This document shows, one piece after another, positions 30,499 to 49,783 of a DNA stretch of 64,000 nucleotides (within the stretch, counting starts at the first letter, position 1; each line of letters opens with the position of its first letter). The translations under genes were made by a program, and so were the position numbers. The stretch comes from Paenibacillus sp. FSL K6-3182 (lineage in GTDB: Bacteria > Bacillota > Bacilli > Paenibacillales > Paenibacillaceae). The notes under the pieces are model-generated. The model saw only the letters and a program-made list of their open reading frames with translations, searched no databases and was not told the DNA's origin. The stretch covers positions 5,903,001 to 5,967,000 of the forward strand of contig NZ_CP150265.1 of NCBI RefSeq assembly GCF_037976325.1, given 5' to 3'.

Positions 30499-30598
30499 TC
30501 GCCGTGTTCACCCGCATTCTCTTAAATTTCGACTCTATCTGCATTGTACCAAAAATAGGATAGGAGGAGAACCCCATATTTTCCCATTTAAAATTAAT

Positions 30599-31537: not shown

Positions 31538-31545
31538 TACATATA

Positions 31546-32394
31546 TCACTCACTGTCTTTAAGATAGTGGTTAAGCGCTTCTCTCCACGGCCGCAGCATA
31601 TTAAGGCCATTACTGCGGATAGCAGTATGATCCATAACTGAATATGCGGGTCTCGGTGCTGGTCGCGGAAAATCTGCTGTCGTACAAGGCTCAACAAGAA
31701 TAGTTGTGCCGCTGTCTTCAAATATAGCATTTGCGAACTCAAACCAAGAGCAAACTCCGCTATTGGATGCATGATAAATACCATAATAATCAGTTTGCAC
31801 TAGCTCTAGCAAAAAAGCTGCAAGATCATAGGTGTAGGTAGGCGAACCGATTTGATCTGCAACTACTTTGAGCATATCACGCTCACCAGCCATTTTCAGC
31901 ATCGTCTTCACAAAGTTATTGCCATACTTCCCGTACACCCATGAGGTCCGAACAATATAGAAGCGATCATGTAGTGTCTGTACTGCTTGTTCGCCAGCAT
32001 ATTTCGATTTACCATATACCGTTTGAGGATTAATCTGATCATATTCATTGTAAGGAAGAGTGCTGCTCCCATCAAAAACATAATCGGTGCTTATATAACA
32101 AAGCTTTGCACCGATCTCACGAGCAGCTACCGCAACATTACGTGTTGCAGCTGCATTCACACGAAAAGCCTCGTCCGGCTCGGACTCGGCTTTATCTACA
32201 GCAGTATAGGCGGCGCAGTGTATGACAACATCAGGACGATGCAGTGCAAATAAATTCCGGCAGGCTGGGAGACTCGTAATATCAAGCTCACTACGGCTTA
32301 ATCCAATAATTTCAGCTGTATCCGTCGTCCATTGCGACAATTCTCGGCCTAGCTGCCCATTCGCACCAGTAACTACGATTTTTAAAGTAGCCAT
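31546..32394 (-). CDS. rmlD: dTDP-4-dehydrorhamnose reductase RmlD
   Basis: A 282-residue SDR enzyme, the last step to dTDP-L-rhamnose. The nucleotide-binding motif GANGQLGRELSQW, the YISTDYVFDG strand and the YxxxK catalytic pair in VYGKSKYAGE are clear. The start is the ATG at 32394, one base after the rmlB stop; the frame is open 132 nt upstream inside rmlB but without support. The short spacing means coupled translation. Confidence 0.95.
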   Translation of the reverse strand: MATLKIVVTGANGQLGRELSQWTTDTAEIIGLSRSELDITSLPACRNLFALHRPDVVIHCAAYTAVDKAESEPDEAFRVNAAATRNVAVAAREIGAKLCYISTDYVFDGSSTLPYNEYDQINPQTVYGKSKYAGEQAVQTLHDRFYIVRTSWVYGKYGNNFVKTMLKMAGERDMLKVVADQIGSPTYTYDLAAFLLELVQTDYYGIYHASNSGVCSWFEFANAIFEDSGTTILVEPCTTADFPRPAPRPAYSVMDHTAIRSNGLNMLRPWREALNHYLKDSE

Positions 32395-32395
32395 A

Positions 32396-33418
32396 TTATT
32401 CTTTCGCCTCCAGGCGATCTTTGTACTGGGTGTCATAATATTGTTGATAAGAGCCTGATGCAACCTGCTCCATCCACTCTGTATTGCTGAGGTACCATCG
32501 AATCGTTTCCTTGATTCCGTCCTCATAGTTAAATTTCGGCTGCCAGCCTAATTCATTACGAATCTTGTCAGCATCAATTGCATATCTGCGATCATGGCCA
32601 AGACGATCCTTCACGTAGGAGATCAGCGACTCAGGCTTGCCAAGCTCTTCAAGAATCGTGCGAACAACCTGCAGATTGTTCCGCTCGTTACGTCCACCAA
32701 CGTTGTATACTTCACCATTAACACCTTTATGCAGTACAAGATCTATTGCGCTGCAGTGATCCTCAACATAAAGCCAATCACGGACATTAAGGCCATCCCC
32801 GTATACAGGAAGCGGCTTATCTTGAAGCGCATTCTGAATCATCAATGGAATAAGCTTCTCTGGAAACTGGTATGGACCATAGTTATTAGAGCAGCGTGTT
32901 ATGTTGACGTTTAGTCCGAACGTTTCATGATAAGCTCTAACAAGGAGATCCGCCCCGGCCTTGCTCGCCGAATATGGACTGTTTGGCGCAATCGGCGTAT
33001 CTTCCGTGAAAAGCCCCGTCTCACCCAGCGTTCCGTACACTTCATCCGTAGAAACTTGAACGAATTTAGTTACGTTATATTGCTTTGTAAGATCAAGAAG
33101 CGTCTGAGTACCAAGAATGTTTGTCTGTACGAAAATCTCTGGATGCAAAATGCTGCGATCTACATGAGATTCTGCTGCAAAGTTAATAACAGCGTCGATG
33201 CCTTGTTGGAATAACGGCTCCAATTCTGAACGTTTAGCAATATCTGCTTTCACGAATGAATAGTTTGAATGCAGCTCAATCGATCGCAGGTTTTCAAGAT
33301 TGCCTGCATATGTGAGTGCATCAACATTAATGATTTCGTAATTTGGATAGTTTTTAATCATATACAATACAAAATTGCTGCCTATAAAGCCGGCACCGCC
33401 GGTAACTAGTAATTTCAT
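32396..33418 (-). CDS. rmlB: dTDP-glucose 4,6-dehydratase RmlB
   Basis: A 340-residue extended SDR. MKLLVTGGAGFIGSNFVLYM binds NAD; VSTDEVYG and YSASKAGAD hold the catalytic Thr-Asp-Glu and Tyr/Lys; RCSNNYGPYQFPEKLIP is the substrate loop. It converts dTDP-glucose to the 4-keto-6-deoxy sugar. Part of rmlACBD order on the minus strand. Confidence 0.96.
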   Translation of the reverse strand: MKLLVTGGAGFIGSNFVLYMIKNYPNYEIINVDALTYAGNLENLRSIELHSNYSFVKADIAKRSELEPLFQQGIDAVINFAAESHVDRSILHPEIFVQTNILGTQTLLDLTKQYNVTKFVQVSTDEVYGTLGETGLFTEDTPIAPNSPYSASKAGADLLVRAYHETFGLNVNITRCSNNYGPYQFPEKLIPLMIQNALQDKPLPVYGDGLNVRDWLYVEDHCSAIDLVLHKGVNGEVYNVGGRNERNNLQVVRTILEELGKPESLISYVKDRLGHDRRYAIDADKIRNELGWQPKFNYEDGIKETIRWYLSNTEWMEQVASGSYQQYYDTQYKDRLEAKE

Positions 33419-33427
33419 GAGTCTAAC

Positions 33428-33991
33428 TCACCCTTCATATACAAAGTTGATTTCCGCATCGGCAAGCACCGGATGCTTGCCATCCTTATCCGATAAAATC
33501 GGAGTAGAAGTCGGCCAATCGATTGCTAGTGCCGGATCGTTCCAGGCGATGCCACGGTCGTGTTCGGGGGAATATAGGGCATCAACTTTGTATTGAACTT
33601 CACAATTGTGAGTTAGAGTGCAAAAACCATGAGCGAATCCTTGTGGAACCAAAAGTTGAAGTTTATTGTCTGCAGATAATTCAAAGCCTTGCCATTGTCC
33701 AAAAGTAGGTGAGCCCTGTCTTATATCGATGACAACATCATAGATCCTACCCGCAGAAACTCTTACAAGCTTTGTTTGTGCCTTTGATCCAAGCTGATAA
33801 TGCATACCTCTTAGAACATGCAATTCTACTGAAAGGGAATGATTATCTTGTATAAAGTCATAATTAAGCCCAAGCTCAGCAAATGTTTTAGCATTATAGC
33901 TCTCCATAAAGAAGCCACGATGATCACCAAACACTGCGGGTTCTAGCAATTTCACTCCAGGAAGATCAGTCTCTCTTACTATCAATATCAA
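33428..33991 (-). CDS. rmlC: dTDP-4-dehydrorhamnose 3,5-epimerase RmlC
   Basis: A 187-residue cupin. FGDHRGFFMESYNAKTF, DNHSLSVELHVLRGMHYQ with the catalytic His, and VPQGFAHGFCTLT are family motifs; the catalytic Tyr follows in VDALYSPEHDRGIAWNDP. It sits 9 nt before rmlB. Confidence 0.95.
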   Translation of the reverse strand: MILIVRETDLPGVKLLEPAVFGDHRGFFMESYNAKTFAELGLNYDFIQDNHSLSVELHVLRGMHYQLGSKAQTKLVRVSAGRIYDVVIDIRQGSPTFGQWQGFELSADNKLQLLVPQGFAHGFCTLTHNCEVQYKVDALYSPEHDRGIAWNDPALAIDWPTSTPILSDKDGKHPVLADAEINFVYEG

Positions 33992-34001
33992 TCACCGCCT
34001 A

Positions 34002-34745
34002 TTACAATTTGAATCTTCCAAATTCGTCACCGTAAATGAGGTCCTTTGAAAGTTCATTCGCTTTGCTATATGATACATGAGTCCCTGCGTCCGTCCACCA
34101 GTTACTTAATACATCATATGACAGCTCATTGGAAGTGATATAGGCATTGTTAACATCAGTAATCTCTAATTCTCCCCGGTTCGACGGCTTTAAGGAACGA
34201 ATAATATCAAATACACGGCTATCGTACATATATATTCCGGTTACAGCATAATTACTTTTAGGGTTCTTGGGTTTCTCCTCAATCGATACAATCTTTTCTC
34301 CTGCAAGCTCCGGCACACCATACCGCTGTGGATCTGGCACCTCTTGAATGAGAATTTTTGCTCCGGACTGCTGATCTTCAAAACCTTCAACAAATGATAC
34401 GATTGAATTACTAAAAACATTATCGCCAAGAATGACAACCATTCGTTCGTTGTTGACGAATCGTTCTGCCATACCTAACGCCTGAGCTATCCCACCTGCT
34501 TCATCCTGAACCTTATATGTAAAAGAAAGCCCAAACTCTTTACCACTCCCTAAAAGGTTCACAACATCACCCATATGTTCTTTCCCTGTTACTATAAGTA
34601 TGTCTTCAATAGCTGCTTCTTTCAACTTAGCTATTGCGTGGAAGATCATAGGGTAACGTCCAACTGGAAGTAAGTGCTTGTTTGTTACTTTCGTCAAGGG
34701 AAATAGGCGTGAACCAGTTCCACCTGCTAGAATGATTCCTTTCAT
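34002..34745 (-). CDS. rmlA: Glucose-1-phosphate thymidylyltransferase RmlA (short form)
   Basis: A 247-residue nucleotidyltransferase: GIILAGGTGSRLFPLTKVTNKHLLPVG, ILGDNVF, IEEKPKNPKSNYAVTGIYMYD and WTDAGTH are the standard motifs. It is about 40 residues shorter than the enteric enzyme, lacking the C-terminal allosteric part, as is common in Bacillota surface-glycan clusters. First gene of the rml operon. Confidence 0.93.
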   Translation of the reverse strand: MKGIILAGGTGSRLFPLTKVTNKHLLPVGRYPMIFHAIAKLKEAAIEDILIVTGKEHMGDVVNLLGSGKEFGLSFTYKVQDEAGGIAQALGMAERFVNNERMVVILGDNVFSNSIVSFVEGFEDQQSGAKILIQEVPDPQRYGVPELAGEKIVSIEEKPKNPKSNYAVTGIYMYDSRVFDIIRSLKPSNRGELEITDVNNAYITSNELSYDVLSNWWTDAGTHVSYSKANELSKDLIYGDEFGRFKL

Positions 34746-34908: not shown

Positions 34909-35946
34909 TTATTGCTTGCGTTTAATTCCACCAAACATCCATGTAAACGGTATTTTTGAAAATAATATCGCTAAAAATAGAGTCAGAACAATTGTTGCTA
35001 TATATAGAATCGTCATTCCTTTAAGTCCATCAAGTACTATTAGAAGATCTGGATATTCAATTGAAATTATATCTTTATGAAGAAGCACTATTGGGTGCAT
35101 TAAATATAAAAGAAATGAATATTTACAAACATATGCCACAATACTTTTAAATCGAGAATTTAATTCATAAGTCTGAATTCCTATTCCTATTAGTAAGAAG
35201 AAAGAAACAATGGAATAGAATGCCTTTAAATACAAATCGTTGAATTGAGCTAGTAGTGCCACATTGTTTTGTTGATAAAAAAACATAAACACAATTAGCC
35301 ATACCAACATAACAAATATTTCTTTTCTATATATAATGCTACGTATTAAATTATATCTTTGATATGTAATCATACCTAAAACTAAATATACTAACCAGTT
35401 AAGAGGTTGATAGAAACCAAATATCCCTAACTTATTGAATATCAACGTAGAATAAATGTTGCTAAGAAAAAAAAGGACAATGGAGGACAAAAAGGTAATT
35501 AACGGATTCTTTATGACAACAAGTTTAATTAGTGGAAATAATAAGTATAGAAAAATCAATATTACCAAGAAGTATACATGGTATATGGTATTACCATATA
35601 TTAAACCATTTAGTAATCTGTAAAAAGATTCCCCGAGACTTTCAACAGTAGGATGATAGAATTTATATATAAGGAAATAAAACACACTCCAAAATACATA
35701 GGGTAATACAATTTTAGGTAACCTCTTCTTTTGAAAAATTAAGTAATTAGTTTGTTTTCCTGATTCAGATGCCATTAAGCCAAATCCCGATAACATTATA
35801 AAAATAGGAACTGCAAATGACATTGAACTATTCCAAACTGCTGCTATAGATTCAGATGTCACATATCCTGCCGATACATGTATACCAATGACACTCAAAG
35901 TAACTATAAATCTAACTAGATCAATTTCATTTATTCGTACTCCCAA
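34909..35946 (-). CDS. Acyltransferase-3-family membrane protein
   Basis: A 345-residue protein with about ten membrane helices and the acyltransferase_3 start NEIDLVRFIVTLSVIGIHVSAGYVTSE, whose His is the catalytic candidate, then the FAVPIFIMLSGFGL loop. Such proteins O-acetylate surface sugars. It is more AT-rich than rmlA and marks the left end of the AT-rich stretch. It is transcribed alone or from a promoter in the 400-nt gap upstream. Confidence 0.88.
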   Translation of the reverse strand: MGVRINEIDLVRFIVTLSVIGIHVSAGYVTSESIAAVWNSSMSFAVPIFIMLSGFGLMASESGKQTNYLIFQKKRLPKIVLPYVFWSVFYFLIYKFYHPTVESLGESFYRLLNGLIYGNTIYHVYFLVILIFLYLLFPLIKLVVIKNPLITFLSSIVLFFLSNIYSTLIFNKLGIFGFYQPLNWLVYLVLGMITYQRYNLIRSIIYRKEIFVMLVWLIVFMFFYQQNNVALLAQFNDLYLKAFYSIVSFFLLIGIGIQTYELNSRFKSIVAYVCKYSFLLYLMHPIVLLHKDIISIEYPDLLIVLDGLKGMTILYIATIVLTLFLAILFSKIPFTWMFGGIKRKQ

Positions 35947-36348: not shown

Positions 36349-37344
36349 TTAAAAACTCCTAATGATAGACCTTAACTTTATTAAAATAAAACTAAATATA
36401 GGAAATTGCAAATAGAATATCCACCATAAATTCCTACTTAATCCTTGGCTAGGAAAATGAAGTTTAGTATATAACATACTTAAGGAGCAATTAAAATACT
36501 TTATTTTTCCTGACAATCTATAAATTTTTGATAGCTGTTCAGAACTTACTTTAAATTCATTATTGCTAATATGTTTGGCGTATGATAATAATTGCGTTTC
36601 CTTTTCAATTAGAAATGCACTTCTAAGTTGAAGAAAATCGTTATATTTTTTTGATTCATATAATTTATTTTTATTAACGATACCAATATAATTATTTTGA
36701 TGTTGACGGTACATTAGTAAAGATTCATCAATAAAATCAATTCCATCTGACGTGGATGCCGCTAAAGCTAACCACGAATCATGCATTTCCACGTGATTTG
36801 GGAATGGTAGAACTAAGTTTTTTAACTCTCTCCTTGCTATAATTGTACAACCAGTCACAATATTTAGACTCAATAACAATCTCCATTGTTCCCCTTTTAT
36901 TGGTTTAATCTTCTTTCTTCTCCAATACGAATCTGCTTGAGTTACTAACTGAGAATTCACGATTTCTAGATCAGAATACATTAATAATACTTCGTTATTT
37001 GAAATTGCTGTTAAAGATTTTTCAATTTTATTAGGATACCAAACATCATCTTGATCGCATAACATAAAATGTTTAGAATTTGAAAGACCTATTAACTTTT
37101 CAAAGTTTTTGATAACTCCAATATTAGAACTATTAGTTTGATATATTATTCTACTGTCTAATTTTGAATAATGTTGAATGATCTCTAAAGTATTATCATT
37201 AGAACAATCATCTGAAATAATTAATTTAAAACTTTTATATGTTTGATTCAATATTGATTCTATTTGTTCAGCTATATATTTTTCACCATTATAAGTAGCC
37301 ATTAGTACATCAACATTATTCTCATCCACTTTACACAACTTCAT
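36349..37344 (-). CDS. GT2 glycosyltransferase
   Basis: A 331-residue GT-A enzyme with VDVLMATYNGEKYIAEQIESIL, ISDDCSNDNTLEII and the DQDDVWYPNKI metal motif of the rhamnosyltransferase-like GT2 group. A hydrophobic C-terminus (about 300-325) may associate with membrane. AGGAGGG precedes the ATG. Codon use is strongly AT-biased. It is the last gene of the minus-strand glycosyltransferase run. Confidence 0.88.
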   Translation of the reverse strand: MKLCKVDENNVDVLMATYNGEKYIAEQIESILNQTYKSFKLIISDDCSNDNTLEIIQHYSKLDSRIIYQTNSSNIGVIKNFEKLIGLSNSKHFMLCDQDDVWYPNKIEKSLTAISNNEVLLMYSDLEIVNSQLVTQADSYWRRKKIKPIKGEQWRLLLSLNIVTGCTIIARRELKNLVLPFPNHVEMHDSWLALAASTSDGIDFIDESLLMYRQHQNNYIGIVNKNKLYESKKYNDFLQLRSAFLIEKETQLLSYAKHISNNEFKVSSEQLSKIYRLSGKIKYFNCSLSMLYTKLHFPSQGLSRNLWWIFYLQFPIFSFILIKLRSIIRSF

Positions 37345-37396: not shown

Positions 37397-38704
37397 TTAA
37401 TCCCACTTTAATCGTGCTTTAAAATGTTTTGACAAAGAAGATATGAAATCTTTGTAATGTTTAACAGATATATATATCATATATGAACCAAGCAAGATGA
37501 AGATCGGCATGATAAAAAAACCATATCTATCATTAACGATAAATACATTTGAAACTGCTATATACATGATTATCATTAAAGAAAGACAGAACACACTTCC
37601 TCTTTTTCTAAAGATAACGGTTGCGAATATTGCAGAGATGATTGTCATGTAGTGATATAAATATATTGGTTTAACAAAGAATGAATTGTTATTCATATAT
37701 AATGAGATAGCTGATGGCCTTTGGAACAAATATATCGTTTTACCGAATACATACCAACTTATCCACAATGCTGGATGACTACGGAATCCTTCTTCTATGC
37801 GCAAATGTGCCGCTTCTTTTTGAGAAATTCCCATTTCATTTGCTTTGTTCATCATTTCACCATAATCCTCTAATTCGAATGGGTTAGTACCCGCAAATAA
37901 AGGATTTTCTTGACTTGAAAATAGAATAAACTCATTAAGTACTATCAAATTTCTCACTACCCAGGGTGCAATAATTAATATGGGCCCAATCAACCAAAGA
38001 ATAGCTATTCTCAAACTGTTTTTAACACTATTATTATATACAATAATACCTATACCAATTAATACAAGTGGAGCAGGACTTGGTCTAAACATAAGCAATA
38101 TTGAGAAGATTATTCCAAACAGAATGTGATATTTAGCATTATTTTTCTTAATTGCTAAAACAAACAAGAGTAACGATAAACAAAACAAAAAAATAGCAGG
38201 AATTTCCGTTAACAATGCTCTAAAATAATGATACTGGGGGAAATATAACATGTATCCAAATCCAGAAAGAAATCCTACCCATATTTTCCCGAAAATATTA
38301 AAACCGATGTAAAACATTAATACTGAAGTTGCAATACTAAGTAACATATTCGCTATTTTTGCAAATAATAAATGATCACCTCCTGTTAAGTCAGCGATTC
38401 CAAATATGATTGCAAGATAAACTGGTTGACCAGGAGTTACATACGCATTCGGTGCTGTAGAAGCAAAACCAAGAAACCCTTTAGATAGAAGTTGTTCCGC
38501 TGTTATTGAGTAATAAACAGCATCAAAAGAACCATACTTAAGAACTTTATCACCATATACTTCAGTTAAAGAAGCATCATATACTTCAGGATTATTAAAA
38601 CTTTGTCCAGGATTATGATATAAAAAATACATATGAAGATAGCATGATAAAAAAATCATAATCACAAAAACATATTTCACCTTACTCATAGAGTTTTGCC
38701 TCAT
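37397..38704 (-). CDS. Polytopic membrane protein, GT39/ArnT-like
   Basis: A 435-residue protein with about eleven membrane helices. The first long loop after helix 1 carries NPEVYDASLTEVYGD...YYSITAEQLL and TPGQPVYLAIIFG, the pattern of GT-C glycosyltransferases of the GT39/ArnT type that use polyprenyl-phosphate sugars outside the membrane. It could add a side-chain sugar to the exported glycan. Assignment rests on topology and loop pattern only. Confidence 0.65.
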   Translation of the reverse strand: MRQNSMSKVKYVFVIMIFLSCYLHMYFLYHNPGQSFNNPEVYDASLTEVYGDKVLKYGSFDAVYYSITAEQLLSKGFLGFASTAPNAYVTPGQPVYLAIIFGIADLTGGDHLLFAKIANMLLSIATSVLMFYIGFNIFGKIWVGFLSGFGYMLYFPQYHYFRALLTEIPAIFLFCLSLLLFVLAIKKNNAKYHILFGIIFSILLMFRPSPAPLVLIGIGIIVYNNSVKNSLRIAILWLIGPILIIAPWVVRNLIVLNEFILFSSQENPLFAGTNPFELEDYGEMMNKANEMGISQKEAAHLRIEEGFRSHPALWISWYVFGKTIYLFQRPSAISLYMNNNSFFVKPIYLYHYMTIISAIFATVIFRKRGSVFCLSLMIIMYIAVSNVFIVNDRYGFFIMPIFILLGSYMIYISVKHYKDFISSLSKHFKARLKWD

Positions 38705-38755: not shown

Positions 38756-39850
38756 TTATATGCTATCAAATATTCCCTTTATTATTTGCGATCTTTTTTC
38801 CCAAGTGTTCATCTCAAGAAATCTTCTTATTTCGATTCTCTTTTTTTCATCAATTATTTGACTTTCGATATTATTAATAATTCCAAATAATTCTTCGTCT
38901 GTTGAATATAAATGTATAAAGTTTTCAAATTGATTCATTTCATCATACTTAATACTGATAACTGGTTTATAAAAACTTAAATATTCATATATTTTAACTG
39001 GATTAACGGATAAAATTAAATCATTTAAAATAAATGGCATAATAAAAGCATCTGCTTTTTTAGCATACTCAGGTAATAAATGATGTTCAACAGGTCCAAT
39101 AACCACTAACCTCTCATGTGTAGGTATATTGAGTTCTATGGGACCAACTAATGTAATTATTATATTCGCAAATCTATCCAATAATCTCATTATTAAATTA
39201 ATATCTACCCATCGAGCAACGGTACCGATATACATAATATTTAAAAAGGAATGATCATGGGTATCTGGCAAATTCATTATGTTTTGATTAATAAATATGT
39301 TTGAGATTCCATTATTGATAACTATTGGTTCACTACGTAAATATTGCCCGTATGAATTAATTAATACTTGTTTCAAGAAATTCGATGAAACAAGAACAAC
39401 ACTAGATTTCATAATAAGATCGATTTCGTATTTTATATTTACATGATAATTTTCCTTATTAATATCAAAAGCCATAAAGTTATCCATACAATCATATATA
39501 ACTATTTTATTATCAAGAAATCCATCTGGTATTAATTGCATTATCACTGGCGATGTAATCCATATATAGTTATACTCTTTTATTCCACTAAAACTTCTGC
39601 TATTAATACTTTTTTCTAAAAATCTTATTCCGTTCGACCTTGATGAATAAGGTAATTTATATAATTCATTAACTGTATATTCATTATAACCTTTACGTTC
39701 ATTATTAATTTTGTTTTTGTGGAATACTCTGTTCACATAATATAAATCAACAGAATAATGCTTTGTCATCTCTTCAAACAAAAAATGAGGTCTTTGCTTT
39801 ATCCAATTCCAATGAACATGCATTAGATACAACATTTTAGGAGGATTCAA
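38756..39850 (-). CDS. GT4-like glycosyltransferase (TuaH-like)
   Basis: A 364-residue GT-B protein. MLYLMHVHWNWIKQRPHFLFEEM is the typical start of TuaH/WbbX-type enzymes, and VNPVKIYEYLSFYKPVISIK is the donor-site motif. The TTG start follows AAGGGG. It shares this donor-site motif with the C-terminal half of the 817-residue fusion at 40884-43337, suggesting a paralogue. Confidence 0.8.
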   Translation of the reverse strand: MNPPKMLYLMHVHWNWIKQRPHFLFEEMTKHYSVDLYYVNRVFHKNKINNERKGYNEYTVNELYKLPYSSRSNGIRFLEKSINSRSFSGIKEYNYIWITSPVIMQLIPDGFLDNKIVIYDCMDNFMAFDINKENYHVNIKYEIDLIMKSSVVLVSSNFLKQVLINSYGQYLRSEPIVINNGISNIFINQNIMNLPDTHDHSFLNIMYIGTVARWVDINLIMRLLDRFANIIITLVGPIELNIPTHERLVVIGPVEHHLLPEYAKKADAFIMPFILNDLILSVNPVKIYEYLSFYKPVISIKYDEMNQFENFIHLYSTDEELFGIINNIESQIIDEKKRIEIRRFLEMNTWEKRSQIIKGIFDSI

Positions 39851-39861
39851 AAATATACCCC

Positions 39862-40884
39862 TTATGAAATTATTTTTTTGAATTCAATCATAAATTCGTC
39901 TTGAAGCATTAACGAATACTTTTCTACTATTCCACTACTAACTTCATAGTTTTCAATGATATTAAATAATTTCCCAACAGTTTTCTCTTTACTATTTCTG
40001 TCAAATAGAAATTCATCATTATGTTTTACTAAATTACTATGAGCAACGTTATTAAATAATAAAACTGGTATTTCAAACGCCATAGCTTCTGCTACAGAAA
40101 GACCAAAACTTTCATGTAATGAAGCTGACATAAATACTCCTCTTTGACTTTTTACAAATTTCAATAAATCCCAAACCTTATCGAAGTTTAAAGGAGGTAA
40201 ATATATTGTTCTATCTTGTATGCCATATTTCATTAATAGTGTTTCTAGATCAATCTCATGTTCAATCACATTGCCTGCTAGTATAAGTATTAGTTGATCA
40301 CCATGAATTTCATTATATTGCACAAATATTTTTAATATATCTTCAACATTTTTCAATCTATCAATTCTCCCTACATAAAGTATAGGTGTCTTCATGTATA
40401 TTTTAGAATGTTGCGTACTATTACTTTGTGTATAGACGTTATTTGAGAGAACTCTAACCTTTGATTTCAAATCTAAATTCACTTCAGAAATAATACTTTG
40501 TTTAAAGTGTTCTGAAGGTACCAGTATACCTCTAATATTGGATGGAAGAGTTTTTAAATATGTTCTGTTTTTCTCATAAGATGTATGACATTCAATAAAA
40601 GTTTTACTTGCATCAACTATGTCTAATATTTCAGGCGTATCAATAGAAAATATAACGTCATAATCTTGGTTAATAACCTCTACTACATTAACTATAGAGT
40701 CCAGTCCATTGTTTGTTATGTATTCTCGAAACTTCTCTTTCCCACCACTATCATGAAAAAAAAACACATCATATTGAATATTCAAATCAGCTTCCTGTAT
40801 TGCATGTGCCCTATTTAGAAGTACTCTTTCCACTCCACCCATAGTTGCCCATTTATAAACACTTAGAACTCGCTTTATACCCAT
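39862..40884 (-). CDS. GT4-family glycosyltransferase
   Basis: A 340-residue GT-B enzyme. RVLSVYKWATMGGVERVLLNRA is the acceptor-side start, ILYVGRIDRLKNVEDILKIF and MSASLHESFGLSVAEAMAFEIPVLL (E-x7-E) form the donor-binding half. Its ATG overlaps the stop of the upstream fusion gene by one base, so it is translationally coupled. Confidence 0.9.
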   Translation of the reverse strand: MGIKRVLSVYKWATMGGVERVLLNRAHAIQEADLNIQYDVFFFHDSGGKEKFREYITNNGLDSIVNVVEVINQDYDVIFSIDTPEILDIVDASKTFIECHTSYEKNRTYLKTLPSNIRGILVPSEHFKQSIISEVNLDLKSKVRVLSNNVYTQSNSTQHSKIYMKTPILYVGRIDRLKNVEDILKIFVQYNEIHGDQLILILAGNVIEHEIDLETLLMKYGIQDRTIYLPPLNFDKVWDLLKFVKSQRGVFMSASLHESFGLSVAEAMAFEIPVLLFNNVAHSNLVKHNDEFLFDRNSKEKTVGKLFNIIENYEVSSGIVEKYSLMLQDEFMIEFKKIIS

Positions 40885-43337
40885 TATTTATATAACCTCG
40901 CATATATATTATCCTTTGTGGATGCTAATAGTTCATTAAAACGCTCATCCCATGTAGATTCTATCAAAAATTCTGAGAGTTGATTATAATCATAATCTTC
41001 ACCAGTACTTAATTCATACATTTCATTAATTAAATATCTGAATTTAAGAACATCATTTTCTGACACTTTAACTAATGGTATAGAATTTAAGTGACTAATG
41101 CCGGTTACGACAGTCGGCAAACCAAAATAAAGATATTCATAAATTTTTATTGGGTCAACTGCCTGTGATAAAGGACTGTTAATGAACGGGATAATCCCTA
41201 CATGCCAATACTTCACGTAATTTTCTAATTCATTAGGTTTTATTTTTCCATAGTATTTCACATTCGAAAATGTCTTTAACTTCAAAATAGTCTCTTCGCT
41301 AGCACCATACCCTATAAGATGTAGGAATACACTTTTATCCTCTAATAAATTAAATATCAAATTCCAATCGAACCATGATTCAGTCAAATGGCCAAAATAC
41401 CCTACATGCATTATGCTGTGCTTGTTCTTTTTCTTATTTACGATATTAGATTTTCCAATGAGATTTTCATAATAGCCATTACCAATACAGATTATGTCTT
41501 TACGTAAATAACTAAACTTTTCTACCAGAGGTTGTGATACTGCTACTACTTTGTCAGCTTGTAACAACATACTTTCCTCGGCAATTTTGTTATACCAAGG
41601 CGCTTGCCCAACTAATGCAAACTGCTCCCATTCGTCCATAATGTCATATACTATGCTAAAACCATTCATTCTAAGATCTTTAATAATATGAACATAATTA
41701 TTTGAGGGAATATTTAAAAAAGCATACTTTTCTTTAATTACTTTGACTTCATTAAGATCAGCTAAGGAATCCATAAACGAATACATAGGAATTGTAAAAA
41801 CATGAGGATAAACCTCATCATATGATTGATCAACTACCTCGTCACGTTCCCATTGCCAAACTATAAACAAGGTTGCAATTTTATTACTTGATAAATATTT
41901 AGCTAAATTAATAGTTCTTTGGTTATAAAGCTCATCAAATGGAAACGCAGATGGAATGATTGCTATCCCACGAATATCATTTTTTTCCTCACTAATAACC
42001 AATTGTTTGTAAACTTCAAGTAAACGTATCCTATCATCAGGGTTAATCTGTTGTTCATTGAGCTGTTTTTTCATTTTGTGTTTTACAAGTTGAAAATAGG
42101 ATTTCATTCCATTGTTTTTTATTATTTTTAAAGATTTAAATATATGTTTTATGATTGGTGTCTTATCTCTAAAAGAATAGTATTTTCTGGAAATTTTCCA
42201 AAAATCAGATCGATATAAATTATTTAGATCCATTGACAAGTTATAATTCTCACTTTTTAGCCATTCTTCTTGTCTCTTAAAATATTCATTTTCTTCAATT
42301 AGACTCTTTCGTTCCTGAAGCAACTCTCTTGCCTTATTATTCAGGTCAACACACTCAATTTGGGCATCATTAAACAGACCAAGATTGTGTGTTAATTGGT
42401 TGGAAAGAGTTACCTTCTCTTGTTTTAGTTCTTCTATCAATAATTGTTGTTGTTCTAGCAAGCTAATTAAACGATTTGTCTCATCCTTTTCAGTTATCAT
42501 TTTTTCGATTATTTGATTGTTTTGATTTATTATTCCTATCAAATCGTTGTTATGTTTTTCTGAATTTCCAATTCTAATTTCTTGTTGCTCATTTCTTTTT
42601 TTCAACTCTTTAATCATTAATTCTTTTTGTTTATTCAATTCTTTTATCTCATCATAATCTTCAGAAAGACCACCAATAAGTTGGCTCATCTTAACTTGAT
42701 AACTCGGTTCAAAATCACATCGCTTGTATATTAATAAAATTTGTTTACCTAACCAAAAAATATTATCTTTTTTTGAACAATCATATTCATATGAATAAAC
42801 CAACTCAAAATTTCCACGTTTCAATTCAAAATCGGAGTATTCAAATGTATAAAAGTGTTCATCAAATCTATCTCGTTCTTGAAATGGTAATAATAAAATC
42901 ACATATTGTTTCGAACATTTAAGTAAATAGTCTAACATTTCAAATGGATCATAGAAGTGTTCCAATGTATTTGAACTAAATACAACATCATACTCTTCAG
43001 TGATATCTTTAATATCCTTAGCGAAAAATTTATTATTTGGAAACTGTTCAATGGCTTTTTTTATTGCTTCTTTAGAAAAATCCAATCCAACAAAATTGCT
43101 TTTTTGGTATTTTTTTGAAAATAAATCAACACCATCTCCCTCAGCACATCCAATGTCTGCTAAAGTAATTCCACTATTTAATTGTACATGCATCCAGTCC
43201 GGAATTAATTGCAATGCTATATTATAAAAATATAGTGTCTGTAATTTACCTGCATTTTCTTCCCAATTATGAATAAACCTATTATCCCAATAGTCCACAC
43301 TATTAATATTAGAGCCTGTAAATTTCATTTCCATCAC
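40884..43337 (-). CDS. Methyltransferase / coiled-coil / glycosyltransferase fusion (WsaE- or WbdD-like)
   Basis: An 817-residue three-part protein. Residues about 10-195 are a class I SAM-dependent methyltransferase (motif I DIGCAEGDG at 61-69, then SSNTLEHFYDPFEMLDYLL). About 220-375 is a long coiled coil (ELNKQKELMIKELKKRNEQQ onward). About 430-815 is a GT4-like GT-B domain with VDPIKIYEYLYFGLPTVV near the end. The plan recalls WsaE of Geobacillus (methyltransferase plus rhamnosyltransferases) and WbdD of E. coli O9a (methyl cap plus coiled-coil ruler). It lies directly before the Wzt gene. Likely role: glycan extension and methyl capping that sets chain length. Confidence 0.82.
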   Translation of the reverse strand: MMEMKFTGSNINSVDYWDNRFIHNWEENAGKLQTLYFYNIALQLIPDWMHVQLNSGITLADIGCAEGDGVDLFSKKYQKSNFVGLDFSKEAIKKAIEQFPNNKFFAKDIKDITEEYDVVFSSNTLEHFYDPFEMLDYLLKCSKQYVILLLPFQERDRFDEHFYTFEYSDFELKRGNFELVYSYEYDCSKKDNIFWLGKQILLIYKRCDFEPSYQVKMSQLIGGLSEDYDEIKELNKQKELMIKELKKRNEQQEIRIGNSEKHNNDLIGIINQNNQIIEKMITEKDETNRLISLLEQQQLLIEELKQEKVTLSNQLTHNLGLFNDAQIECVDLNNKARELLQERKSLIEENEYFKRQEEWLKSENYNLSMDLNNLYRSDFWKISRKYYSFRDKTPIIKHIFKSLKIIKNNGMKSYFQLVKHKMKKQLNEQQINPDDRIRLLEVYKQLVISEEKNDIRGIAIIPSAFPFDELYNQRTINLAKYLSSNKIATLFIVWQWERDEVVDQSYDEVYPHVFTIPMYSFMDSLADLNEVKVIKEKYAFLNIPSNNYVHIIKDLRMNGFSIVYDIMDEWEQFALVGQAPWYNKIAEESMLLQADKVVAVSQPLVEKFSYLRKDIICIGNGYYENLIGKSNIVNKKKNKHSIMHVGYFGHLTESWFDWNLIFNLLEDKSVFLHLIGYGASEETILKLKTFSNVKYYGKIKPNELENYVKYWHVGIIPFINSPLSQAVDPIKIYEYLYFGLPTVVTGISHLNSIPLVKVSENDVLKFRYLINEMYELSTGEDYDYNQLSEFLIESTWDERFNELLASTKDNIYARLYK

Positions 43338-43340
43338 TCT

Positions 43341-44594
43341 CTACTTTCGCAATTGTTTCCTAACTGGAGTATGTATTATACCAAATAACTGTTTATCTGA
43401 AATTGATTTAATATAAGCAGCGCCCTCGATATAATCAAAATATTGCGGTTGTATATGACTTCTATCCTCAATTGCAACTACTAGTACAAAATCACCATTA
43501 ACAAAAAAATTCACAAATTCAAAAGTGATTTCACCATTCACATCTACTTCAGAAATTGATATTTCATCATCATCTTTAGTTGTAAATACAAGTAGATCCA
43601 ATCCCATTGTATTTTTTATGGAAAGAGCAACACTCACATTCGTGAGATCCGCTATATCTGGCAATTTAAACTTGACTTTTATCCGGATAGTTTCACCATG
43701 TTTAATTACACTCGTTTCTCGACCTTTTTCGTTAATAACCTGTACTGATTTTAATAGATTAGGTTGGCTTCCCCATCTATTGATGATTTGTTCAAATATA
43801 TTAGCTTCTGCTTCTGCTTCTTCTATTTTCAGATTTTCTATTTGTAGTTTATTTACAGGTTCACTTTCATCTTCTGTATTCATAAATTCCATGTACTCTG
43901 CTGTTACACTAAGAGTATCACCAAAAGCAATTAATTTGCCTTGATGCAGCCAAATTGTTCTGTCACAAAACTTTCTAATGCTGGATACATCATGTCCTAC
44001 AAAGAGAATCGTAACTCCCTGATTTTTCAGCTCTTCAAACTTTTTAAAACATTTTGTTTGAAACTTCATATCTCCCACAGCTAATGCTTCATCTACAATT
44101 AGAATATCTGGATTTACATTTATCGCTACTGCAAATGCCAACCTGGCAAACATCCCACTTGAATACGTTTTTACTGGTTGATAAATAAATTCACCTATTT
44201 CAGCAAACTCTAATATTTTGGGAAGTATGTTGTCTATCTCTTTTCTTGATTTCCCTTGGAGTGTACCATTAAGATAAATATTCTCCATTCCACTATATTC
44301 AACATTAAAACCGGCACCTAATTCTAAAATCGCCGAAATTTTACCATTTACAACTACATTACCGCTTGTATGATTGAGAACTCCTGTTAAAATTTTTAAT
44401 AGAGTAGATTTCCCCGAACCATTCTTACCTACTATCCCTATTGTTTCTCCCTCTTTAATTTCAAAACCAACATCTTTCAACGCATGAAATTCTTTGTGTA
44501 ATTGTTTGATATTTCCAAAAACAACTTCTTTTAGACGATGTGTTGGTGAATCATATATTTTGTATATCTTTGATAGATTCTGAACTGTAATCAT
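43341..44594 (-). CDS. wzt: ABC exporter ATPase Wzt with C-terminal extension
   Basis: A 417-residue ATPase energising glycan export. Walker A GKNGSGKST, signature YSSGMFARLAFA and Walker B DILIVDEA are clear in the first 240 residues. The remaining roughly 150 residues form a beta-rich domain (about 275-417) like the Wzt C-terminal domain that in E. coli O9a binds the capped glycan end. It lies 3 nt after the fusion gene on the map, transcribed before it. AAAGGAGC precedes the start. Confidence 0.92.
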   Translation of the reverse strand: MITVQNLSKIYKIYDSPTHRLKEVVFGNIKQLHKEFHALKDVGFEIKEGETIGIVGKNGSGKSTLLKILTGVLNHTSGNVVVNGKISAILELGAGFNVEYSGMENIYLNGTLQGKSRKEIDNILPKILEFAEIGEFIYQPVKTYSSGMFARLAFAVAINVNPDILIVDEALAVGDMKFQTKCFKKFEELKNQGVTILFVGHDVSSIRKFCDRTIWLHQGKLIAFGDTLSVTAEYMEFMNTEDESEPVNKLQIENLKIEEAEAEANIFEQIINRWGSQPNLLKSVQVINEKGRETSVIKHGETIRIKVKFKLPDIADLTNVSVALSIKNTMGLDLLVFTTKDDDEISISEVDVNGEITFEFVNFFVNGDFVLVVAIEDRSHIQPQYFDYIEGAAYIKSISDKQLFGIIHTPVRKQLRK

Positions 44595-44606: not shown

Positions 44607-45404
44607 TTAAAGTACGTCTGAAAAATGTGGGGTTAATTTTTTAAATAACCTTGCACCGACCAGCAATAATATTATTGTAATCAACCAGTAATAAGGAGTA
44701 ATTTTATAATGCTCCCAAAACCATACTTTATTAATAAAGGAATCGCGATATCCTTGAACAATATAAAAAATAGGATTTAATTTAAATATCAGATCGTATT
44801 TTGAAGGAACCATTGAATATGACCAGAATATTGGTGTTAACCAAAATCCAAATTGTAATATAATCGCAATCACTTGACCAACATCTTTTAAAAAAACATT
44901 TAATGCTGAGGATAGCCAGGTTAGACCGATAACTAGTAGAAATAGGGCACCGGTGTAATAGACTACTTGTAAAAGATATAAATCCACTCCAACACCATAA
45001 AAAATAAACACTAACAAAGTAATACTTAAAAAAACGATATGTATAAAAAATGCAGATACCACTTTAACAACTGGAAGCAAATGTACTTTAAACACAATTT
45101 TTTTGACTAAGAAACTATTCTGCTCTATTGCAGATGTAGCAGACGAAACACTCTCCGAAAAGAAAAACCATGGAACTATACCAGCTAATAACCATAATAT
45201 AAAAGGAAATTCACCTATTGGGAAAGATCTAAAACCTATCTGAAAAACAAACCAGTAAGTTATAATTAATAATAAAGGATGAGCGAAAGCCCAAAAGGCT
45301 CCAAGAGTTGAACCCAGATAACGTGAAGAAATGTCTTTTTTTGATAATTCGAATACAGTTCTTCTGTCTTTGTAAATATCTTTAAAGTACCTTAAAAAAG
45401 TCAT
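44607..45404 (-). CDS. wzm: ABC-2 type glycan exporter permease Wzm
   Basis: A 265-residue permease with six membrane helices. The family start is YFKDIYKDRRTVFELSKKDISSRYLGSTLGAFWAFAHPLL; GFWLTPIFWSYSMVPSKYDLIFKLNPIFYIVQGYRD is the conserved C-terminal pattern. With Wzt it flips a completed polyprenyl-linked glycan across the membrane. It starts the minus-strand operon running to 36349. Confidence 0.93.
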   Translation of the reverse strand: MTFLRYFKDIYKDRRTVFELSKKDISSRYLGSTLGAFWAFAHPLLLIITYWFVFQIGFRSFPIGEFPFILWLLAGIVPWFFFSESVSSATSAIEQNSFLVKKIVFKVHLLPVVKVVSAFFIHIVFLSITLLVFIFYGVGVDLYLLQVVYYTGALFLLVIGLTWLSSALNVFLKDVGQVIAIILQFGFWLTPIFWSYSMVPSKYDLIFKLNPIFYIVQGYRDSFINKVWFWEHYKITPYYWLITIILLLVGARLFKKLTPHFSDVL

Positions 45405-45848
45405 ATTATATCCCCTTTTTAAAAACTCATTTGAATTATTCTCAACATGATAAAAATAGTTAATGAATTAATTTATTGTTTTATATTATTAATAAAATAT
45501 TTTCACATGTTTATAAGGAATTTCTTATATTTATAAAAATCTTCTTTTCACACTTCTAAAATAATCATCGTTTAAACTAAATGTACTATTCAAAAAAAAC
45601 TCCGAATCCACCCCTGCTATCTTACCAAAATTCCTCCCACATTAACACCTTATTCTACCTTTACACCGAATAAATTGTAGAATTTTTCCGATTTCCTCTC
45701 TATTTCGACAAAACCTCATATTCTACAAATTTGTAAACTACATACAAATCACATCTCCTAATATAGTAATCTACTCCCCCATTTGTTAAAATACAAATAA
45801 AGCTAATTGTTTCATATCTACATAACGATGGATGAGGAGTACATACGA
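45405..45848. promoter_or_regulatory. AT-rich divergent intergenic region
   Basis: 444 nt between wzm (minus) and the ligase-like gene (plus). I see no gene. ATTCTAC occurs three times (45652-45658, inverted at 45677-45683, and 45720-45726) and a palindrome ACAAATTTGT overlaps the last. The promoters are not clear enough to place. Confidence 0.4.
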
Positions 45849-48110
45849 ATGAGTGCACGAAACAAATCAAAAAGGAATACGAACACTTTAAATGCTGATT
45901 TTGCGCTTTTGAGGTGGATTGGGGCTATTGGAATCGCTCTATTTCTAGTCATCTTCCCCTATGAGAGAGCATTGTTTAACGGTTACGAATTAAGCTTTGA
46001 AGGCCCAATTTATGTAGCACTCATCTTCGCTTACGTGATGCTTGCCTTTACTGCATTTTATGTGTATCGCAACTCACAGATGAACAGTTATCGTGGAATT
46101 TTGTCGATTGCCGTCATGCTGCTTCCATTCATTTATTGGTTGTCATCATTACAGGCGGTTTCAACCTATTATGCGAAGTTTATGACTCTCGTATTTTTCC
46201 TACTTGCTGCTTTATTCATAGGCGCTCTGTATTTTGCAGAAAATAAGCTAACCCGCAAAACAATTGAATACGCGGTTATGCTCTCTTCTTATTTAATCGT
46301 TCTATTTGGTTTACTCAACCTTTTTGGTCAACTCTATTATAAGGATGCGCTATGGCTTGCACATGATGGCTACCGCCTTTCGTCGGTATTCCAATACTCA
46401 AACTCATACGCCGGCTTCCTAGTCGCTTTATTTCTAGTTAGTTTGTATTATGCAGTTCACTGCGTGCGTCCATCTGCAAGAATCATTCATGCTGCCATGC
46501 TTGTACCGATTTGGATTTCATTCATGCTCACTTATTCACGCGGTGCAATTGTTATTATTCCAGTTATGCTGCTTATTGTGCTGCCTTTCTTACGCTTAAC
46601 GAAGCAAATTACATACATCGTGTTTATGGGCGTATCTGTAGTGGTTTCCATGGCTGTCCTTGGAAAACTAACAACGATTGCTGATAAAATAGCTACACTA
46701 GTTCAACCTACTGAAACGAAAGCGCCAAGTACAATTTCCTTGTTCAGCTCACTGCCTATGCAGGGCTGGGGATTACTTCTGCTCGGCCTGCTCATTGTTA
46801 CTGGCCTTATTATGCTTTATCATGCCAAAGCTGCTGATTTCCTAGAAACGAAGCTTGCCAAGCTTTCTTCGTACAAATGGTCTTTTGCGGCTGTGCCTGT
46901 CATTACAATCGTACTTACTGCTGTAGCAGCGGTCAGCCTTCTTGGCAGCAGCGCTATTCGCGGCTTGCTTCCTGACAAAATTGCTGCACGCTTTGAAAAT
47001 ATTAACCTCCAACAGCACAGCGTTTTGGAACGTTTAACCTTTTACAAAGACGGTCTTCGTGTAGCTGAGGATTACCCGCTGCTTGGAGGCGGTGGCGGCG
47101 CTTGGCAAGCCATGTTTGAGCAATATCAGAATAACCCTTATTGGAGCAGACAAGCACATAGCTTCTTTGTACAAGTTCTTGTGGAGAGCGGTTGGCTTGG
47201 TCTACTAGCAGTCGTCGGACTGCTCGCGTTTGTATATTTTTTATACATCCGATCCTTTATTCGTTATCCCGAGCTTAGAGGCAGCCATTTTGTCTTTTTC
47301 ATTTTTTCTTTGGCGCTGCTAGTCCACAGTGTGATCGATTTTGATATGAGCTATATTTATATTATCTCTCTCGTCTTTATTTCTCTCGGTTGTATGCTTG
47401 CTCCATATAGCCACAAGCTAATAATCGAACGTATGAATGGCAAGCTTAATAAATCTTGGCCAAAAATCGCATATCCAGCGGTTATGGCGTTATTGTCTAT
47501 ATTCCTTCTTGTCATTGCCATCCGAGAAACAAACGCAACTAGTAACTATAATAAAGCTATCGATTTGGCAGTTGGGCAGCAAACTTCTTTAGAACAACTT
47601 CTGCCTATACTTGATCGTGCCATTAAGTCTTCACCAACACAGCCTTATTATAAGCTAACGAAAGCTGACTGGCTGGAGCAGGCTTATAAGCAAACGAACA
47701 CCGCTACATTCCTTGACCAAGCTCTTAGTACGGTTAAGGAAGGCAGAAAATATGATCCTTATAATCGAAGCCTTCTAATGTCGGAATATCGTTTTCTGCA
47801 AGAAAAAGGACTTTTTGAAGAGTCGCTCGCAACGATTAATGAAGGTGTCAAAAAATTCCCTTGGGATATCAATCTATATGAAGCTGCGATAACCTCATAC
47901 GCTAAAGCAAATCAAACTGCACTTACAGAAAAGGATGAAGCTAAAGCAAAACAATATGCTCAGCAGGTTGTCGATCTCTCTAACGAAGTTAAAAGAAGAA
48001 TCGGTCAGCTAGCTTCACTTCCAGCCGAGCAGCAGCAAGGACGTACATTTGCAATGACACCAGGTATTGAGGAAGCAGTAGCCCAAATCGAGCTTGCTTC
48101 GGCACAATAA
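45849..48110 (+). CDS. O-antigen ligase / Wzy-like membrane protein with C-terminal TPR-like region
   Basis: A 753-residue protein with about twelve membrane helices (residues about 18-530) and a soluble helical tail (about 560-753) with tetratricopeptide-like pairs (LDQALSTVKEGRKYDP, FEESLATINEGVKKFPWD). The Wzy_C/ligase domain shows YSRGAIVIIP and QAHSFFVQVLVESGWLGLL. In slg clusters such proteins (WsaB/WsfB) transfer the glycan to the S-layer protein, so that role or wall ligation is probable. Start at 45849 has AGGAG 9 nt upstream; an ATG 42 nt earlier lacks one. Confidence 0.87.
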   Translation: MSARNKSKRNTNTLNADFALLRWIGAIGIALFLVIFPYERALFNGYELSFEGPIYVALIFAYVMLAFTAFYVYRNSQMNSYRGILSIAVMLLPFIYWLSSLQAVSTYYAKFMTLVFFLLAALFIGALYFAENKLTRKTIEYAVMLSSYLIVLFGLLNLFGQLYYKDALWLAHDGYRLSSVFQYSNSYAGFLVALFLVSLYYAVHCVRPSARIIHAAMLVPIWISFMLTYSRGAIVIIPVMLLIVLPFLRLTKQITYIVFMGVSVVVSMAVLGKLTTIADKIATLVQPTETKAPSTISLFSSLPMQGWGLLLLGLLIVTGLIMLYHAKAADFLETKLAKLSSYKWSFAAVPVITIVLTAVAAVSLLGSSAIRGLLPDKIAARFENINLQQHSVLERLTFYKDGLRVAEDYPLLGGGGGAWQAMFEQYQNNPYWSRQAHSFFVQVLVESGWLGLLAVVGLLAFVYFLYIRSFIRYPELRGSHFVFFIFSLALLVHSVIDFDMSYIYIISLVFISLGCMLAPYSHKLIIERMNGKLNKSWPKIAYPAVMALLSIFLLVIAIRETNATSNYNKAIDLAVGQQTSLEQLLPILDRAIKSSPTQPYYKLTKADWLEQAYKQTNTATFLDQALSTVKEGRKYDPYNRSLLMSEYRFLQEKGLFEESLATINEGVKKFPWDINLYEAAITSYAKANQTALTEKDEAKAKQYAQQVVDLSNEVKRRIGQLASLPAEQQQGRTFAMTPGIEEAVAQIELASAQ

Positions 48111-49331: not shown

Positions 49332-49783
49332 TGTTTATGTTCAAGGACCATAAGCGGCTGGCAGCCACTGATACATTAATTGGCCAAGGCACGATAAGCG
49401 AGGGCCGGCTAATTTGTGAAGCAAGTCTTCGCATTGAAGGGGAGCACCGAGGCGATATCGAATGCAAAGCTGACGTCATCATTGGAGAATGTGGTCTTGC
49501 TCGCTCGAATATTACGGCGCGTGATATTACCATTGCAGGAAAGGTTTTCGGAGATATCGTCACCAAGGGGAGGCTGATCATTACTTCCTCCGGCACGTTA
49601 ACGGGGGCAATTACAACCCAAACACTGATCATTCAAGATGGCGGCAAGCTGAATGGTAACTGCTACATGGAGCAAGCAGCTGACAGCAAAAATCGTGTGC
49701 CAGTAGAATCCGATCCACCACACATCACCGGTAAAGAAACAGTAATTAAAGAATCCAAAGAGAAATCTCGACAAGCAGGATAA
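49331..49783 (+). CDS. Bactofilin (polymer-forming, DUF583)
   Basis: A 150-residue bactofilin. The right-handed beta-helix core (about 15-115) shows the turn-by-turn pattern DTLIGQGTISEGRLICEASLRIEGEHRGDIECKADVIIG, with a charged disordered tail. Bactofilins form filaments that position wall enzymes; pairing with an M23 peptidase is a known operon arrangement. It overlaps the peptidase stop codon. Confidence 0.93.
   Translation: MFMFKDHKRLAATDTLIGQGTISEGRLICEASLRIEGEHRGDIECKADVIIGECGLARSNITARDITIAGKVFGDIVTKGRLIITSSGTLTGAITTQTLIIQDGGKLNGNCYMEQAADSKNRVPVESDPPHITGKETVIKESKEKSRQAG

What the first reader, a model, noticed from the sequence alone, without database searches (positions are those of the whole stretch)
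40884..44594. Methyltransferase, coiled coil and glycosyltransferase fused in one protein next to a Wzt with C-terminal domain: possible molecular ruler for glycan length
The 817-residue protein joins a SAM-methyltransferase (motif I DIGCAEGDG), a coiled coil of about 150 residues and a GT4-like domain. The adjacent Wzt has a beta-rich C-terminal extension. In E. coli O9a, WbdD caps the chain, its coiled coil sets length, and Wzt reads the cap; Geobacillus WsaE joins methyltransferase and rhamnosyltransferases for an S-layer glycan. Here the ruler, cap and polymerising GT appear to be combined in one chain, which would be a compact, possibly undescribed version of this logic.
Basis: partly seen in the sequence, partly recalled or inferred. 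Interest (0 to 1): 0.72.

Follow-up and report, generated by a model that had tools for sequence, protein, structure and literature searches.

The report
Methyl-capping glycan-length ruler protein
A bacterial protein appears to join a chain-capping enzyme, a rigid spacer and a sugar-adding enzyme in one molecule, next to an exporter with a matching cap-reading domain; this is a Gram-positive variant of a known way to measure sugar chains, and related proteins occur as otherwise identical copies with spacers of different length, which makes the ruler idea directly testable.

Summary
ORF 40884-43337(-) encodes 817 residues: methyltransferase (8-206), long helices with 3.5-residue periodicity (224-376), a basic amphipathic segment and a GT-B glycosyltransferase (455-817). 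It follows wzm and wzt; Wzt ends in a Wzt_C cap-binding fold. Relatives run from Paenibacillus to Proteobacteria. Where Wzt is adjacent, its C-terminal domain tracks the methyltransferase head, not the glycosyltransferase (17 of 17 methyl-headed loci, 0 of 10 others; three further methyl-headed loci gave no adjacent Wzt). The spacer, between invariant residues, varies from 69 to 301 residues, often in heptad steps (18 of 43 independent differences; flanking tail 1 of 25). That signal comes from distant members; among those nearest the window it is not significant (3 of 13). Some relatives are identical apart from whole 14-residue units. Best reading: a capping enzyme held away from a membrane-bound glycosyltransferase by a ruler, Wzt reading the methyl cap, probably for a rhamnose-containing surface glycan. 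The logic is known from Klebsiella O12 and O7 and Geobacillus WsaE: a new variant, not a new kind. Methylation, cap, polymerase activity and length control are untested here.

The parts
40884..43337 (-). 817-aa methyltransferase - coiled coil - glycosyltransferase protein
42720..43316 (-). SAM-methyltransferase head, residues 8-206
   Evidence: Pfam; model; invariant motif
42210..42668 (-). coiled coil, residues 224-376, about 23 nm if continuous, break at 316-327
42057..42206 (-). post-coil helical segment with the SxxW motif, residues 378-427; residues 395-412 have the highest hydrophobic moment of any 18-residue window of the protein and net charge +5: candidate membrane anchor
40887..41975 (-). 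GT-B (GT4-like) glycosyltransferase domain, residues 455-817
43341..44594 (-). Wzt ATPase subunit with C-terminal domain
43365..43787 (-). Wzt C-terminal cap-binding-type domain, residues 270-410
44607..45404 (-). Wzm permease (ABC2_membrane)
45807..48110 (+). Wzy_C / O-antigen-ligase-like protein, divergent, WsaB-like in position
39862..40884 (-). GT4 glycosyltransferase, overlaps the 817-aa gene by one base
38756..39850 (-). GT4-like glycosyltransferase, Pfam match below cut-off (a 369-373-aa GT lies downstream in several related loci)
37397..38704 (-). PMT_2-type membrane glycosyltransferase
36349..37344 (-). GT2 glycosyltransferase
34909..35946 (-). Acyl_transf_3 membrane acyltransferase
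31546..34745 (-). rmlA-like (below its NCBIfam cut-off), rmlC, rmlB, rmlD: dTDP-L-rhamnose supply
28131..31549 (-). GT2-like (30599-31549, NCBIfam matches below cut-off), WcaJ-type initiating sugar-phosphate transferase, GT2

Best explanation
The protein is a chain terminator with a built-in ruler. The amphipathic segment after the coil holds the glycosyltransferase domain at the membrane, where it extends a lipid-linked (probably rhamnose-containing) glycan together with neighbouring GTs. The coil holds the methyltransferase about 20 nm away, so only chains long enough to reach it are O-methylated at the non-reducing end; methylation stops growth. The C-terminal domain of Wzt binds the methylated end and licenses export by Wzm/Wzt; the neighbouring ligase-like protein then attaches the glycan to its surface acceptor, possibly an SLH / S-layer protein. 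Shown here: domains, folds, gene order, covariation of head and Wzt domain, heptad-step length variation in the family. Inferred: membrane contact, methyl cap, polymerase role, ruler action, acceptor.
For: Fold and motifs. Of 82 loci looked at (76, the window, five), 70 scored; after removing two duplicates, 17 methyl-headed loci (window and frameshifted L025 included) have wzt directly before the protein, wzm detected before it in 16, and all 17 have the window's type of Wzt C-terminal domain; 10 loci with a related GT but another N-terminus and an adjacent Wzt have none. Proteobacterial methyl-headed Wzt is 35% identical to Gram-positive methyl-headed Wzt in the C-terminal domain but 17-18% to Wzt beside pyruvyl or GT4 heads, at 51-54% ATPase identity in all three comparisons. 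The methyl pocket of Aquifex Wzt (PMC9445017), mapped by my reading of the alignment, falls on S325, V372, A374 and E376, invariant in all 13, and 388, always Y or F; in the 4 non-methyl heads 372, 376 and 388 differ. Spacer length: 57 of 108 non-identical sequences in one class modulo 7 (61 of 116 with duplicates); 18 of 43 non-zero independent sister differences are multiples of 7 (p 1e-5), controls 1 of 25 and 0 of 18; pyruvyl-headed set 6 of 12.
Against: Among members at least 44% identical to the window the heptad test is not significant (3 of 13), and the window's coil has a predicted break and no tandem repeat. Remote relatives P0023 and P0036 join the methyltransferase to GTs with no coil visible. 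Three methyl-headed loci show no adjacent Wzt: L011 (neighbouring ATPase fragment of 130 aa, no C-terminal domain), L032, and L067 (contig begins just upstream). Monomer model only, pTM 0.55. The sliding heptad score failed. [quoted passage not shown] No glycan chemistry is known to me for this strain.
Confidence: 0.72

Rival explanations
1. Terminator without ruler: the methyltransferase caps and Wzt reads the cap, but the coil is only an oligomerisation or scaffold element and chain length is set by kinetics or enzyme ratio.
For: WsaE methylation is chain-length independent in vitro (PMC2943079); some relatives lack the coil; heptad-step length change is expected of any continuous coil, ruler or not (inference).
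Against: Coil length varies far more than the tail or GT (SD 46.6 against 5.4 and 3.4 residues), whereas coils in general vary less in length than other regions (PMC5082667); coils are reported to act as rulers in WbdD and WbbB (PMC11231755).
Confidence: 0.2
2. The methyltransferase decorates internal residues of the repeat rather than capping the end; fusion with a GT only couples modification to synthesis.
For: Domain annotation alone cannot tell terminal from internal methylation.
Against: The Wzt C-terminal domain covaries with the methyltransferase head and keeps a methyl-pocket-like residue set, which fits a terminal cap.
Confidence: 0.08

Closest known systems
Klebsiella pneumoniae O12 WbbB (Kdo terminator - coiled coil - two GTs)
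   Same: Terminator, ruler coil and polymerising GTs in one chain (PMC11231755, passages and Discussion part 1; WbbB paper itself not held); terminal residue read by Wzt is recalled
   Different: Kdo glycosyltransferase head, two GT modules, Gram-negative O antigen
Klebsiella pneumoniae O7 ORF6 (methyltransferase - kinase - CBM - coiled coil - two GT2)
   Same: N-terminal methyltransferase, central coil, C-terminal GTs, cluster with wzm, wzt and rml genes (PMC11231755)
   Different: Adds methyl-phosphate; has kinase and CBM domains; GTs are GT2. No kinase was detected here, and head and coil leave no room for one
E. coli O9a WbdD
   Same: Methyltransferase at the distal end of a coil of about 20 nm with a membrane-proximal amphipathic helix (PMC5082667, PMC11231755, passages); cap bound by the Wzt C-terminal domain (PMC9445017, passage)
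   Different: Has a kinase domain; polymerase WbdA is a separate protein
Geobacillus stearothermophilus WsaE
   Same: Methyltransferase plus rhamnosyltransferase, beside wzm/wzt in a Gram-positive slg cluster with rml genes and a WsaB ligase (PMC2943079, passages)
   Different: Two GT domains; no coil is mentioned in the passages read; sequence not compared here
Aquifex aeolicus WzmWzt (8dku, 7k2t)
   Different: Pocket polar residues differ (His350 to E376, Asn313 to T338, my reading), so the capped sugar or methyl position may differ

Membership tests
Coiled-coil chain terminators of ABC-transporter-dependent glycans | Terminating enzyme at one end of an extended coiled coil | tested here: met
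   Methyltransferase 8-206, helices 224-376 with 3.5 periodicity; terminating activity itself not testable
Coiled-coil chain terminators of ABC-transporter-dependent glycans | Polymerase modules fused or recruited at the membrane-proximal end | tested here: inconclusive
   A GT-B domain follows the coil and an amphipathic basic segment lies between; that it polymerises or binds membrane is inferred
[quoted passage not shown]
   Domain present and covarying with the head; binding not testable
Coiled-coil chain terminators of ABC-transporter-dependent glycans | Coil length sets glycan length | not testable with these tools
   Needs glycan sizing; only heptad-step length variation in the family was shown
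WbdD | Methyltransferase plus kinase in the head | tested here: not met
   No kinase family in Pfam or NCBIfam; coil starts at 224, directly after the methyltransferase
WsaE | Methyltransferase plus two rhamnosyltransferase domains | tested here: not met
   One GT domain only
Wzt with Wzt_C domain | ABC ATPase plus Wzt_C beta-sandwich | tested here: met
   PF00005 and PF14524 above cut-off; full-length match to Aquifex Wzt
S-layer glycosylation (slg) cluster | wzm, wzt, central GTs, rml genes, ligase | tested here: met
   organisation as described in PMC2943079
S-layer glycosylation (slg) cluster | Glycan attached to an S-layer protein | not testable with these tools
   The genome has many SLH matches (capped at 150); no listed row lies in the window

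The most novel reading that the evidence does not exclude
The window protein is one member of a cross-phylum set of modular, genetically tunable glycan rulers. The same GT module and post-coil motif carry interchangeable capping heads (methyltransferase, polysaccharide pyruvyltransferase, GT4); each head travels with its own Wzt cap-reading domain; and the coil grows and shrinks by whole heptad or 14-residue units, in some lineages by gain and loss of 42-bp tandem repeats, so that chain length is a heritable, repeat-number-controlled trait that can even ride on a conjugative plasmid.
Probability: 0.4. Interest if true: 0.82.

Novelty: new variant of a known kind. Interest (0 to 1): 0.62.

Why it matters
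The S-layer glycan review left open what sets chain length, because WsaE methylation did not depend on length in vitro and an extra factor was thought possible (PMC2943079). A coil between cap enzyme and GT is a concrete candidate. The family also supplies natural variants whose other residues are identical or nearly so but whose coil differs by 1, 2, 3 or more 14-residue units, the series needed to test ruler against kinetic models without engineering. Head and reader covariation offers a way to predict cap chemistry from Wzt sequence.

Tried and rejected
WbdD membership: rejected, no kinase. [quoted passage not shown] WbdD was not among the rows shown, which excludes nothing. The Wzt C-terminal domain alone gave one weak, unrelated PDB match by phmmer (E 0.025); the profile of the whole Wzt did align. 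Tandem repeats in the window's coil DNA: none. Heptad quantisation among the members nearest the window: not significant (3 of 13 pairs); those 35 members fall mainly in two classes modulo 7 (13 and 11), which I read, post hoc, as one register shift. GT4-headed set: 2 of 5, inconclusive. The pyruvyl-headed set was not wholly blind: five total lengths spaced by multiples of 14 had been seen. Period test on 65 representatives below 70% identity: period 14 stronger than 7 (Rayleigh p 0.0025 and 0.019), and period 15 as strong as 7 (0.019); at clustering below 50% (18 representatives) the class excess is no longer significant (p 0.06). The sliding heptad score failed. Rows dropped: of 157 proteins with both end domains, 41 lacked an anchor residue and were left out of the 116; 8 of the 116 are second copies of the same sequence. 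Near-identical pairs from metagenomes may include repeat-assembly errors; without pairs at or above 95% identity 14 of 38 remain (p 5e-4), and below 70% identity 8 of 26 (p 0.025). E. coli genomes searched with 1101 bases of L026 and phages searched with P0126: no match. Papers not held: the 2020 O-antigen review and the WbbB paper, so 'not in print' statements rest only on searches of open papers.

Full report

The coil. Hydrophobic residues in the middle repeat with period 3.5 (power 11.5, at most 1.1 at the five other periods tried; 0 of 100 shuffles); a cruder 28-residue heptad score did not exceed shuffles (same call). Best registers put 0.56-0.57 mean hydrophobicity on a/d against 0.20 elsewhere, in both helices. 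Residues 224-376 would span about 23 nm; WbdD holds its catalytic domains about 20 nm from the membrane (PMC5082667, passages). Directly after the coil, residues 395-412 have the highest hydrophobic moment of any 18-residue window in the protein, with net charge +5; WbdD proteins have an amphipathic membrane helix near that place (PMC11231755).

Family. The first protein search gave 374 hits among the 7998 candidates scored, 120 listed; named full-length relatives include Paenibacillus, Cohnella, Lysinibacillus, Aneurinibacillus, Allochromatium, Burkholderia and Nitrosomonas. In the window's taxonomic family 6 of 295 genomes, the window's own included, have it at E <= 1e-60. In the stretches from the five others, wzm / wzt with C-terminal domain / this protein recur in that order in five of five; a ligase-like gene is present in five of five, divergent next to wzm in three (L086, L087, L090) and elsewhere in two (L088, L089); rmlA is found in four (L089 ends at the contig edge, which also cuts the protein).

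Head and reader travel together. The same GT module is joined to other heads: polysaccharide pyruvyltransferase (L021, L024, L031, P0119) and GT4 (L022, L026, P0105). One search scored 70 of the 82 loci (76, the window, five). Eighteen rows had a methyltransferase head and an adjacent Wzt; without duplicates L087 and L088 these are 16 loci, the window included, and the frameshifted L025 makes 17; all 17 have the window's type of Wzt C-terminal domain, with wzt directly before the protein; wzm was detected before it in 16 (not in L012). Ten loci with another N-terminus and an adjacent Wzt: none has it; four of these are Wzt of 249-281 aa, three of them in loci labelled archaeal by their record titles and all too short for such an extension, so the fair comparison is 0 of 6. 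Fisher p 1e-7 for 17:0 against 0:10 ignores relatedness. Nine headless GTs (L013-L020, L023) have no adjacent Wzt. Methyl-headed loci without an adjacent Wzt: L011, L032, L067. In L083/L090 (one locus) the GT is replaced but head and reader persist. ATPase-domain identity of proteobacterial methyl-headed Wzt (6 sequences) to Gram-positive methyl-headed (7), GT4-headed (2) and pyruvyl-headed (2) Wzt is about equal (0.54, 0.53, 0.51), but C-terminal-domain identity is 0.35, 0.18, 0.17.

Cap pocket. In Aquifex Wzt the methyl group sits among Leu300, Thr346, Ala348 and Trp362, with Asn313 and His350 holding the sugar (PMC9445017, passages). A profile of 17 Wzt aligned to that chain over nearly its length; by my reading of that alignment the positions are S325, V372, A374, Y388, T338 and E376 of the window's Wzt. 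S, V, A and E are invariant in all 13 methyl-headed Wzt and 388 is Y or F; T338 is S in two. In the four non-methyl heads 372 is R/T/S/A, 376 A/A/A/G and 388 gap/R/K/R, while 325 and 374 are partly shared; the alignment of such different domains is uncertain.

Spacer length. Between invariant Q199 and W380 the distance in 116 sequences is 69, 76, 83, 90, 97, 104, 111, 118, 125, 132, 139, 146, 153, 160, 181 and other values up to 301; 61 of 116 fall in one class modulo 7 (16.6 expected), the window (181) among them; 57 of 108 without identical copies. Representatives below 70% identity: 28 of 65. On a tree of head plus GT, 58 independent sister pairs gave 43 non-zero differences, 18 multiples of 7 (p 1e-5). 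Controls on the same pairs: tail 1 of 25, GT 0 of 18; but most control differences are of 1-3 residues (of those of 4 or more: coil 18 of 39, tail 1 of 9, GT 0 of 5). A set with pyruvyl heads gave 6 of 12 (p 0.004) and GT4 heads 2 of 5; the search was made for this, though a few pyruvyl-headed lengths had been seen before. Split by identity to the window (44%): 3 of 13 near, 14 of 28 far, 1 of 2 mixed. The effect is therefore shown for the family, carried by the distant members, not for the window's neighbours alone.

Repeat-number variants. Across the 116 coils, mean identity at lag 14 is 0.28 against a 0.07 baseline (window 0.14). Several pairs are identical or nearly so outside one block of whole 14-residue units: P0070/P0073 711 of 711 plus 14; P0066/P0067 774 of 774 plus 28; P0127/P0128 922 of 922 plus 42; P0126/P0127 963 of 964 plus 28; P0072/P0080 686 of 725 plus 28; P0061/P0065 743 of 766 plus 98. 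A complete conjugative plasmid, pBYT5-5 of a Pseudomonas from wastewater or soil, carries ABC-transporter permease and ATPase genes followed by a pyruvyl-coil-GT gene of 1020 aa with a 42-bp array of 8.1 copies, identical to P0127 (964 of 964) and P0128 (922 of 922) but 56 and 98 residues longer. Arrays of 42 bp also lie in the coils of L011 (5.3 copies, 100% matches) and L033 (3.3 copies, 83%). None is found in the window.

Locus exchange. A genome labelled same species (G284) has no match to the protein at E <= 1e-60, keeps the ligase at 99% identity, and beside it has a different cassette: wzm, a Wzt of 424 aa whose C-terminal domain does not match the window's, a 479-aa protein with a C-terminal methyltransferase after a region that looks helical, and genes that look like GDP-sugar genes (the last two by eye). 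Writer and reader thus appear to be exchanged together at a fixed site.

What is known. [quoted passage not shown] WsaE caps with 2-O-methyl rhamnose and its methylation did not depend on chain length in vitro (PMC2943079, passages). PMC10629545 (passages) shows a pyruvyltransferase encoded by its own gene, WbbZ, capping Klebsiella O1. PMC13168486 (passages) proposes a methyltransferase-coil protein as ruler in E. coli O101. I saw no fused pyruvyl-coil-GT protein and no repeat-number variation of such coils in the searches listed under Tried and rejected. The S-layer review cites O-methyl groups with reference to a glycan of Aneurinibacillus thermoaerophilus GS4-97; that species has a relative of this protein (P0022), strain unknown.

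Verdict. As an architecture it is a variant of a published strategy, in a Gram-positive glycan cluster. The more unusual result lies in the relatives: modular heads matched to readers and repeat-number variants of the ruler.

Noticed in passing
L093:3507-6569 (NZ_CP097494.1), with P0126-P0128: Pyruvyltransferase - coiled coil - GT protein on a conjugative plasmid, part of a series identical or nearly so except for the number of 14-residue units.
   Followed up: partly
L092:8470-11977 (G284, same species): Same ligase site, different wzm / wzt / methyltransferase cassette: apparent exchange of the whole glycan locus within a species.
   Followed up: partly
P0023, P0036: Remote relatives join the methyltransferase to two GT domains through a proline-rich linker, with no coil visible.
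   Followed up: partly
L025:2924-9060: Paenibacillus MAG locus of this type whose genes read in broken pieces (wzm-wzt run together, methyltransferase and GT split), described only.
   Followed up: no
window 48318-49783: M23 peptidase gene followed at once by a bactofilin-like gene (bactofilin recalled from the sequence, not searched) beside the ligase gene.
   Followed up: no
window 34909-35946 and 37397-38704: Membrane acyltransferase and PMT_2-type membrane glycosyltransferase in the cluster suggest further modification of the glycan outside the cell.
   Followed up: no
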